Shown here piece after piece: positions 36,427 through 62,145 of a DNA stretch of 64,000 nt (position 1 is its first letter; each line of letters starts with the position of its first letter). Source of the DNA: Cloacibacterium sp. TD35 (lineage in GTDB: Bacteria > Bacteroidota > Bacteroidia > Flavobacteriales > Weeksellaceae); NCBI RefSeq assembly GCF_028864635.1, contig NZ_CP104850.1, forward strand, positions 2,362,001 through 2,426,000, read 5' to 3'. A model generated the notes under the pieces. That model searched no databases. It saw only the letters and a program-made list of their open reading frames with translations, and was not told the DNA's origin. The position numbers and the translations under genes were made by a program.

Positions 36427-36660
36427 GTGTCGTCCTAAAATAACTATATAGGTTACTTTATGAAAAATTTATTATCAAGTAAACCACACGAAAGGATTTG
36501 TGCGGTAACGGGGACAGCTCTCTGTAGCTAGTCAGTGCGTATAATGTTCATTATGTTACTTGCTGCGGACAGCAGTGTTTTTGGAACCTTGACGATGTTA
36601 TTAAGAACTGAACGTTTTAGTGTGTTTAAGGTCACGGATTAGAAATCCGAGGCATTTGGG
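36427..36660 (+). ncRNA. Structured RNA candidate, copy A
   Basis: The 88 bases at 36513-36600 align with 62011-62093 at 61 of 83 compared positions, with one 5-base gap. The hairpin CTGC-GGACA-GCAG (36563-36575) corresponds to CCAC-AGACA-GTGG in copy B: two internal base pairs are changed on both sides so that pairing is kept. A second hairpin (ATAATG/CATTAT, 36541-36554) precedes it. TCGTC (36430-36434) can pair with GACGA (36591-36595), closing the element, and copy B offers the same at equal distance. A further stem CGGATT/AATCCG stands at 36635-36649. Boundaries are estimates and the strand is inferred from the terminator of copy B. Confidence 0.55.
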
Positions 36661-36784
36661 TTTTATACCAACCTATAGCTTCAACATAAACAATTTTCTT
36701 ATCCCCTACCCTGACTTCGACAAGCTATTAGATTTGCAAAAGAAAAAGTAACTTTAAATATTAATTTAAGTTATACTGATACCA

Positions 36785-36930
36785 GAGGCGCTATGGTGAA
36801 CTAGTTCGACTAATAAATAAGACTTATACTGAGCATTAGACCTTAGCGCCTTTTAGGTTCTTGAACCATTTAGAATTTTAAGTTTCTAGACTTAGTAATA
36901 GCGTTAGTTAGAACCTTGCTGGAAATCAGA
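36785..36930 (+). ncRNA. Candidate IS110 bridge RNA
   Basis: Two large stem-loops lie between the left end and the transposase start. Stem 1 pairs 36787-36797 with 36840-36850 (7 + 3 pairs around one T-T mismatch) and encloses a 42-base loop. Stem 2 pairs AGGTTC (36855-36860) with GAACCT (36911-36916) around a 50-base loop. Known IS110 bridge RNAs have two such loops, one for target and one for donor. In loop 1, TGAGCATT (36830-36837) is the exact complement of AATGCTCA at 37962-37969, the right junction of the element. Expression is not shown. Confidence 0.5.
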
Positions 36931-36952
36931 ATGACCTTTCAATTGTAAATTT

Positions 36953-37942
36953 ATGAAAAATCTATTTATTGGAATTGATATTTCCAAAGAGGTATTTGAT
37001 TATTGTGCTATTGATGAGCAAAACCAAATAATCATCAATAAACAAGTTGCCCCAAATTCCAAAGATGGAATTGAAAAATTTTGTCAAAAACTTGACCAAT
37101 TAAAAGAGTATTCTATCTGGATTGCCATGGAACACACTGGGCATTATGGAAGTTTACTATGTTATGAGTTCTCTATTCGTCAACTTTGTTATTCCTTAAT
37201 CAATCCTTTAGAAATGAAACATGCTACTGGAATTAGCAGAGGAAAAACTGATGCAGTAGATGCTTGGAGAATTGCAAGTTATGCTTTAGCTAATAAACAT
37301 AAACTAAAACCATACATATTACCAGCAAAAGAACTTAGAAAACTCAAAATATTAATGAGTTCTAGAGAACGTTTGGTTAAAGTCCATGTACAAATGAAAA
37401 ACGGCTTAAAAAGCTTAGAGATAGAAGCAAAAATAATCTCTCTAAAGTCTCACACTCAAGAAATGGAGCGAATTATTCTTCAAATAGAAAAATCTATATT
37501 GTCTACGGAAAAACAAATGAGAGAATTTATTAAACAAAACGATGAATTGAAAAACAACTTTCAGAAAATAACTTCTGTTATTGGTGTAGGAGAGATTACT
37601 GCTATAAAATGCATTCTTGAAACGGATAATTTTACCAAATTCAACAACCCAAGAAAGTTCAGTTGTCACTGCGGTTTAGCCCCTTTTAAATATCAATCTG
37701 GAAGCAGTATTAGAGGGAAAACTAAAACAAGTTCGCTCTGTGACAAATCCCTTAAAAGCATCCTTTTTAAAGCTGCTTGCTCAGCTATACAGCATGACCC
37801 TCAACTGAAAAATTATTACTTAAGAAAAACTTCTGAGGGAAAACACAAATTATCTGTAATAAACGCTGTAGCAAGTAAAATTGTGCTAAGAATTTTTGCC
37901 GTATCTAAAAGAAAACAAAATTTTGTAAAACTTTTTAACTAA
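36953..37942 (+). CDS. IS110-family transposase (DEDD recombinase)
   Basis: 329 residues. The N-terminal RuvC-like domain begins FIGIDISKEVFDYC (first Asp at residue 9) and continues with AMEHTGHYG and KTDAVDAWRIASYA, giving the DEDD acidic residues. A coiled-coil linker (~140-200) is followed by the C-terminal Tnp domain (TSVIGVGEITAIKCILETDNFTKF, CGLAPFKYQSGSS) with the conserved serine of the IS110/IS116/IS902 family. The protein is full length with no frameshift, so the element could be active. It is directed by an RNA from the upstream region in characterised members. Confidence 0.93.
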   Translation: MKNLFIGIDISKEVFDYCAIDEQNQIIINKQVAPNSKDGIEKFCQKLDQLKEYSIWIAMEHTGHYGSLLCYEFSIRQLCYSLINPLEMKHATGISRGKTDAVDAWRIASYALANKHKLKPYILPAKELRKLKILMSSRERLVKVHVQMKNGLKSLEIEAKIISLKSHTQEMERIILQIEKSILSTEKQMREFIKQNDELKNNFQKITSVIGVGEITAIKCILETDNFTKFNNPRKFSCHCGLAPFKYQSGSSIRGKTKTSSLCDKSLKSILFKAACSAIQHDPQLKNYYLRKTSEGKHKLSVINAVASKIVLRIFAVSKRKQNFVKLFN

Positions 37943-38079
37943 ACTCTTGTTTTTATCTTAGAATGCTCAACAATTGCTGCATATTTATCTTTTATAAGAT
38001 CTTTGCCAATTGTAATGATATGTCTTCCAGCAGGTCTTATTTTATATAAACCATCTTTAATTTTAAATTCTTTGCTCAT
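37939..38079 (-). pseudogene. GHKL (MORC/MutL-like) ATPase, first 38 codons only, cut by the IS
   Basis: Overlaps the methyltransferase stop by four bases (ATGA), so it was the next gene of that operon. It encodes MSKEFKIKDGLYKIRPAGRH and then IITIGKDLIKDKYAAIVE, matching the N-terminal start of GHKL ATPases found beside DNA methyltransferases, up to the glutamate of the N-box, where E-L-V-K-N-x-Y-D-A-D would continue. At that point (about 37966) the frame enters the IS right end, adds HSKIKTRV and stops at 37939. No remainder of the gene was found on the other side of the IS. Family assignment is from memory of the motif, not from a search. Confidence 0.6.
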
Positions 38080-61928: not shown

Positions 61929-62145
61929 CGTCATCATACCTTATATTCAACTATAGAACTAAGGAATACTGATGACGTAACCCATGAAATGACACGTTTT
62001 GGAATACGAAGACCGCTCTCTTTGGCAGTGTGAATAATTTCGCTTATAAAACTAGCCACAGACAGTGGTGATTTTGGAGTCTTGACGAAGTTAAAATAAA
62101 TTTCCTGTAAAGCCTTTAAACAAATAGTTTTTGGGCTTTTTTTTA
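61929..62145 (+). ncRNA. Structured RNA candidate, copy B, with its own terminator
   Basis: Homologous to copy A over 62011-62093. Hairpin CCAC-AGACA-GTGG (62056-62068) keeps pairing through two double changes relative to copy A and preserves the GACA loop. An upstream hairpin pairs CGTCATCA (61929-61936) with TGATGACG (61970-61977), and CCTTA with TAAGG inside it. An intrinsic terminator closes the unit: AAAGCC (62109-62114) with GGCTTT (62134-62139), then Ts. This gives a ~215-base independent RNA. No protein gene fits the region, and no transposase stands beside it. Confidence 0.6.

What the first reader, a model, noticed from the sequence alone, without database searches (positions are those of the whole stretch)
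36427..36660. Two-copy structured RNA family with covarying hairpin (copy A beside the IS110)
36513-36600 and 62011-62093 are homologous at about 73 % of aligned positions although neither is coding. The central hairpin changes from CTGC/GCAG to CCAC/GTGG with an invariant GACA in the loop: two base pairs substituted on both strands. That is direct evidence for selection on RNA structure. Both copies also allow a closing TCGTC/GACGA-type pairing about 160 bases apart. I cannot match it to a known RNA class. Copy A ends at the IS110 region and may be truncated by it.
Basis: partly seen in the sequence, partly recalled or inferred. Interest (0 to 1): 0.85.

Follow-up and report, generated by a model that had tools for sequence, protein, structure and literature searches.

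The report
Worn-out folded Xer-type recombination sites
The two look-alike stretches are decayed copies of a DNA repeat carried by mobile elements in Flavobacteria; intact copies fold one DNA strand into an imitation of the bacterium's own chromosome-separation site (dif), so this is probably a folded DNA recombination site and not a new RNA gene.

Summary
In detail: copies A and B are homologous and non-coding (local score 46; best of 500 shuffles 31). The RNA-hairpin interpretation does not: CTGC/GCAG with GACA survives in 4 of 60 relatives and is broken in the orthologue of B. The repeat is a family found in Cloacibacterium (the window's genus) and other Weeksellaceae, with diverged members at order level. 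Intact copies have two inverted dif-like sites, 18-19 of 22 arm positions identical to the host's probable dif. One strand folds both sites into one dif-like duplex: 97.8% of cells paired in 55 copies (26-40% when slid), eight pairs with double changes, independent on a tree, conserved mismatches and bulge. It lies in fixed orientation 3' of a recombinase pair in RHS-toxin elements, at the right end of a second mobile unit, and near a third integrase. Copy A keeps only the right site; copy B is decayed; neither is cut by the IS110. Best reading: a CTXphi-attP-like folded single-strand Xer site. No recombination was tested; single-strand origin or RNA remain possible. The crossover of the RHS elements lies elsewhere, in the RHS core codons.

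The parts
36512..36533 (+). copy A: remnant of the inter-site loop (GACAGCTCTCTGTAGCTAGTC)
   Evidence: matches the loop of intact Cloacibacterium copies L003, L036, L105
36534..36561 (+). copy A: right dif-like site (site2), AGTGCGTATAA-TGTTCA-TTATGTTACTT
   Evidence: identical to site2 of intact copies at 353922 and 355586 of the own genome; site1 is missing to its left, replaced by the flank downstream of the MarR gene, as in G003 L034
   Evidence: copies alone at 355408 and 357702 and in L041; hairpin not kept in the family
61932..61959 (+). copy B: decayed left site (site1), CATCATACCTTATATTCAACTATAGAAC
   Evidence: position matches site1 of its orthologue L043, whose upstream half matches the family (31 versus shuffle maximum 25); in B itself that half no longer exceeds chance (119 of 500 shuffles as high)
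62027..62054 (+). copy B: diverged right site (site2), AGTGTGAATAA-TTTCGC-TTATAAAACTA
   Evidence: aligned with copy A and L043
62055..62140 (+). copy B: right flank repeat ending in a terminator-like run of T
   Evidence: homologous to the flank of A; partial copy at 2482358
36953..37942 (+). IS110 transposase (neighbour, not part of the repeat)
   Evidence: PF01548 and PF02371

Best explanation
A and B are fossil copies of a 110-170 bp DNA module carried by mobile elements of Flavobacteriia. The intact module has two inverted dif-like sites. In one strand they pair along their whole length and form a single dif-like duplex: a XerC-type arm (GTGCGTATAA), a centre with an asymmetric bulge, and a XerD-type arm (TTATGTTA). 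Inferred mechanism: as in the CTXphi attP, the folded single strand, not the double strand, is what XerC/XerD-type tyrosine recombinases recognise, so an element that is transiently single-stranded can undergo a one-strand exchange. In double-stranded form site1 has a 7-bp and site2 a 6-bp centre, so the two should not recombine efficiently with each other. Shown: family, anatomy, folding signal, dif likeness, position in mobile elements, decay of A and B. Inferred: recognition by host XerC/XerD (Cloacibacterium has no TyrB), single-strand exchange, and the biological use.
For: Site1 (reverse) arms CCTATAA...TTATGTTAAAT equal the 18 inner arm positions of the probable host dif AATTCCTATAA-TTTATA-TTATGTTAAAT, at the GC-skew switch near 1.99 Mb; over 55 copies 18-19 of 22 arm positions agree. 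On 55 copies, 26 pairs: 97.8% paired versus 26-40% when slid by 1-3 columns; 88 double-change cells versus 30.9 in shuffles; covariation score 0.192 versus 0.076 (0 of 500). On a tree without helix columns: 5.4 versus 0, 5 versus 0, 3 versus 0, 3 versus 0, 3.6 versus 0 coordinated versus opposite independent changes. Mismatches TT/TT and G.G and the bulge are conserved, and wobble favours one strand: 30 G.T against 1 A.C cells. Arms differ between elements of one host, C. oryctis, but pair within each. Arms diverged at order level (G551, G360) and in L184 still pair, beside the same TyrA-TyrB-RHS units. Position: 34 of 40 pattern hits lie in one of two fixed gene orders; 20 of 30 loci fetched by TyrB protein alone have the pair 27-411 bp 3' of TyrB. 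Geometry equals CTXphi attP: two inverted dif-like sites, 5-7 and 12 bp centres, 90 bp apart (PMC4246890).
Against: No element sits at the chromosomal dif in the own genome. The crossover of the TyrA/TyrB units is in the RHS core codons, 345-1100 bp away, and the related Aureibacter unit has no recognisable hairpin; the MARQKS units end at a tRNA-like motif. So the hairpin is not the crossover of those elements. The wobble asymmetry is 7 columns against 1, over half of it in one column. No phage, plasmid or IMG/VR record with the site was found.
Confidence: 0.55

Rival explanations
1. Single-strand origin or primase-loading hairpin: the fold starts complementary-strand synthesis when an element is single-stranded (conjugation, rolling circle).
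For: strand-specific large hairpin, modular in at least two element types, beside a CHC2/Toprim primase gene in one
Against: does not explain why the arms equal the host dif with XerC/XerD polarity and spacing; the MARQKS units carry no recognised replication gene
Confidence: 0.2
2. Structured non-coding RNA, transcribed from the site1-to-site2 strand.
For: compensatory changes and G.U wobble on one strand; no Rfam match, so it could be a new class
Against: arms are dif-like; no consistent promoter or gene context (convergent with TyrB in one setting, other genes in the second); copies A and B have lost the helix; no promoter-like site above chance near A
Confidence: 0.12
3. Two ordinary double-stranded Xer or integrase sites whose likeness is kept by protein specificity or by template-switch correction of the quasi-palindrome; no folding function.
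For: each site alone resembles dif; inverted repeats tend to be homogenised (own knowledge)
Against: conserved mismatches and unequal centres are not corrected; centre bases not expected to be read by protein covary; arms differ between elements of one host while pairing within each
Confidence: 0.13

Closest known systems
CTXphi attP (two inverted dif-like sites folding into a XerC/XerD site; PMC4246890)
   Same: two inverted dif-like sites with unequal centres about 50-95 nt apart, folded by one strand into one dif-like duplex; arms match host dif
   Different: in chromosomal elements with their own recombinases or with unknown mobilisation, not in a filamentous phage; not found at dif; no integration shown
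Integron attC site (PMC4792948)
   Same: conserved folded structure more than sequence, asymmetric unpaired bases, suggested strand preference, beside tyrosine recombinases
   Different: arms are dif-like, no attI or IntI, not at cassette boundaries; the tested crossover of the neighbouring element lies elsewhere
pdif/Xer modules and IMEX
   Same: dif-like arms exploiting XerC/XerD
   Different: known pdif are single 28-bp double-stranded sites flanking genes; here two inverted sites with a folding signature (pdif comparison from own knowledge)
dif-flanked phiCjT23-like prophages of Flavobacterium (PMC9719478)
   Same: Flavobacteriia, dif-like sites, tandem 6-9 kb spacing suggested it
   Different: the units here carry TyrA/TyrB, primase and RHS toxin genes; no capsid or phage hit

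Membership tests
CTXphi-type folded attP | two inverted dif-like sites within about 100 nt | tested here: met
CTXphi-type folded attP | arms match the host dif | tested here: met
   18-19 of 22 arm positions to a predicted dif; dif itself is a prediction supported by GC skew
CTXphi-type folded attP | one strand folds into a single dif-like site, under selection | tested here: met
CTXphi-type folded attP | carried by a filamentous ssDNA phage | tested here: not met
   no phage or IMG/VR hit; neighbours are integrases, primase, RHS, DUF5675, DUF6943
CTXphi-type folded attP | integration at chromosomal dif | tested here: not met
   own-genome copies at 17, 354, 2398 and 2424 kb; predicted dif at 1993 kb
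CTXphi-type folded attP | XerC/XerD-catalysed single-strand exchange | not testable with these tools
   needs a recombination assay
integron attC | element boundary/crossover lies in the folded site | tested here: not met
   TyrA/TyrB crossover maps to RHS core codons
integron attC | integron integrase IntI in the element | tested here: inconclusive
   TyrA is nearest to Xer-type recombinases, IntI4 third among solved structures; the IntI-specific extra helix was not examined
known RNA family (Rfam 15) | covariance-model match | tested here: not met
   none at gathering score in the window; only sub-threshold chance hits in five loci
   4 of 60 copies keep it; broken in L043
IS110 bridge RNA | lies inside the IS110 element | tested here: not met
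   intact copies have no IS110; copy A lies outside the IS110

The most novel reading that the evidence does not exclude
Chromosomal mobile elements of Flavobacteriia, some of which move RHS toxin-immunity cassettes with a two-recombinase system (TyrA plus a TyrB lacking conserved catalytic residues), carry a strand-specific folded dif mimic that lets their single-stranded form be processed by Xer-type recombinases: a single-strand recombination route outside phages and integrons.
Probability: 0.35. Interest if true: 0.78.

Novelty: new variant of a known kind. Interest (0 to 1): 0.58.

Why it matters
Single-strand recombination by tyrosine recombinases is, as far as I know, described for integron cassettes and a few filamentous phages. 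A folded dif mimic spread over Flavobacteriia in non-phage elements would extend it to a new phylum and cargo, RHS toxin cassettes, and is directly testable with oligonucleotides and xer mutants. It also warns that two-copy covariation can be read as RNA when the conserved structure is a DNA site.

Tried and rejected
Rfam: no match. Tandem small prophages as carriers: suggested by 6-9 kb spacing, rejected by gene content. Phage, plasmid and IMG/VR carriers: none found. The hairpin as the TyrA/TyrB crossover: rejected, because attL/attP/attR of Aureibacter pAT2 and a Weeksellaceae array place it in the RHS core motif. The hairpin as integration point of the MARQKS units: not supported by their left ends. 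Intact tRNA genes at the MARQKS units: tRNA-Asp genes near only one, L119. Covariance model R1 on the window: no hit, as expected for a half site and a decayed copy. Contig-end overlaps as a sign of circular forms: none. Structure of the MARQKS protein: moderate model, unspecific beta-sandwich matches. Searches for an empty site beside A, B and L085 gave none. The literature library gave no description of this module; subscription papers are not held.

Full report
WHAT WAS CLAIMED AND WHAT IS THERE. The window lies at 2362001-2426000 of a 2.595 Mb single-contig genome. Its genus is Cloacibacterium: contigs of C. normanense IMET F match genome G006 of the same genus. Copies A and B are homologous non-coding stretches; their local alignment scores 46 against a shuffle maximum of 31. 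The DNA of A finds five more places in its own genome and several in congeners, among them L043, the orthologue of B downstream of the same catalase gene. Rfam has nothing.

ANATOMY OF INTACT COPIES. Longer relatives (L003 in the same genome, L036, L037, L105 and others) show a second element to the left that A lacks. Reading left to right: AGGAAAGCATTTAACATAATGCCACATTATAGGGAC (site1), 52-95 nt of partly conserved loop, then GTGCGTATAATGTTCATTATGTTACTTGC (site2). Each is a dif-like sequence and the two are inverted. Site1 read backwards is AGTCCCTATAA-TGTGGCA-TTATGTTAAAT. The best dif candidate of the own genome is AATTCCTATAA-TTTATA-TTATGTTAAAT at 1992850, near the switch of GC skew. E. coli dif for comparison is GGTGCGCATAATGTATATTATGTTAAAT (PMC3025954). 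Across 55 copies site1 agrees with the host dif at 18-19 of 22 arm positions and site2 at 15-16.

FOLDING. Site1 and site2 are complementary as one folded strand. On alignment A1 (55 copies) a 26-pair helix has 97.8% paired cells against 26-40% when slid by 1-3 columns, 88 double-change cells against 30.9 in shuffles, and no shuffle reaches the covariation score. On a tree built without the helix columns, coordinated changes are independent: 5.4 versus 0, 5 versus 0, 3 versus 0, 3 versus 0 and 3.6 versus 0 for five pairs (each count is too small for significance alone, none goes the other way). The centre, 5 nt in site1 against 4 nt in site2 inside the flanking T..A, pairs next to the XerC arm and leaves an asymmetric bulge on the XerD side. 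Mismatches TT/TT and G.G are conserved, which argues against simple homogenisation. Wobble is on one strand only: 30 G.T cells in 7 columns against 1 A.C cell; with DNA parameters that strand is the more stable in 54 of 55. In one host, C. oryctis, three elements have different arms (CAC/GTG, CAT/ATG, CAA/TTG), each pairing with itself. Diverged copies still pair: L184, L186 and two genomes of another family in the order, G551 and G360.

WHERE IT SITS. Setting 1: 3' of a pair of tyrosine recombinases, TyrA and TyrB, in tandem units of about 6-9 kb with a CHC2/Toprim primase or helicase-like protein, an XRE regulator and RHS C-terminal toxin fragments. A search that started from TyrB protein found the pair in 20 of 30 fetched loci by pattern, 27-411 bp 3' of TyrB; the orientation is the same wherever the strict pattern or the model sets it. 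Two further loci have diverged or degenerate forms. TyrA keeps the Arg, HxxR, GH and Tyr motifs in most homologues (three had no match to the first motif); TyrB lacks the first Arg and the His in all 24 examined. Setting 2: the right end of a discrete mobile unit with a 252-aa protein (MARQKS), DUF5675, a holin-like protein and DUF6943. In Cloacibacterium this unit has different flanks in each genome and homology ends 7 bp after site2. Setting 3: 0.5-0.6 kb 3' of an integrase of about 406 aa (L007 beside tRNA-Phe, L092, L106). Of 40 pattern hits in named genomes, 34 are in settings 1 or 2 with one orientation. The common denominator is the attachment-proximal region of integrative elements.

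WHAT IT IS NOT. It is not the crossover of the TyrA/TyrB units: in Aureibacter plasmid pAT2 attL, attP and attR share TATGGATT in the RHS core codons, and in the Weeksellaceae array L087 homology to the full-length RHS gene starts at the equivalent motif. The crossover there is hundreds of bases from the hairpin, and the Aureibacter unit has no recognisable hairpin. It is not the insertion point of the MARQKS units either, whose left ends lie at a tRNA-3'-like motif. No element lies at dif in the own genome.

BEST EXPLANATION. The match to the host dif, the unequal centres (7 and 6 bp), the one-strand fold that rebuilds a single dif-like duplex, and the position in mobile elements are the features of the CTXphi attP, where two inverted dif-like sites with 12 and 5-7 bp centres 90 bp apart are active only as a folded single strand (PMC4246890). 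I therefore read the module as a folded single-strand Xer site. Recognition by host XerC/XerD is the likely case in Cloacibacterium, where the TyrB profile finds only a weak match at the level seen for ordinary Xer-type recombinases. What the elements gain is unknown; single-strand origin function is the main rival, RNA the next.

THE WINDOW COPIES. A is a half: site2 and its flank repeat survive, site1 is gone, and the same truncation is present in another species (L034), so it predates and is unrelated to the IS110, which lies beyond a further repeat. B keeps both positions but both are decayed; the family model does not find either copy. Neither is likely to be functional.

LIMITS. The dif is a prediction. 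Related sequences inflate raw pair counts; the tree test mitigates this. No recombination, binding or transcription was tested.

Noticed in passing
L217, L218 (Aureibacter tunicatorum plasmid pAT2, NZ_AP025307) and L087: Tandem units carrying TyrA, TyrB, primase, XRE, immunity gene and RHS C-terminal toxin insert site-specifically into the conserved RHS core motif (Y-x-Y-x-[F/Y]-N-G-K-E), so site-specific recombination appears to swap the toxin end of RHS genes in frame.
   Followed up: partly
alignment A2; TyrB genes 3' of TyrA in L077-L132: TyrB is a tyrosine-recombinase-like protein lacking the first catalytic Arg and the His in all 24 homologues examined, always paired with an intact-looking TyrA.
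   Followed up: partly
G000:C1:1992850-1992873 (L149): Probable chromosomal dif of Cloacibacterium, AATTCCTATAATTTATATTATGTTAAAT, at the GC-skew switch.
   Followed up: partly
L188, L190, L191 (genus g16): 3' of more distant TyrB genes lies a different, long, hairpin-rich conserved non-coding region.
   Followed up: no
L008 5658-7930 and relatives in L084, L085, L105, L094, L119, L123: Conserved mobile gene set of a 252-aa protein without Pfam match, DUF5675, a holin-like protein and DUF6943, function unknown.
   Followed up: partly
L008 9263-12295 (G000 354-357 kb): Two cargo genes (274 aa and 408 aa) flanked by long inverted repeats and by copies of the site, resembling a cassette cluster.
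   Followed up: no
window 36725-37960: IS110 element; it appears to have inserted into a separate repeat (ATAGCTTCAACATAAACAATTTTCTT...) about 65 bp beyond copy A, not into copy A; exact ends not determined.
   Followed up: partly
L078-L089, between the paired hairpin and the RHS junction: A second inverted repeat (AATGTGGATTTGTGG/CCACAAGTCCACATT) whose arms also differ together between elements.
   Followed up: no
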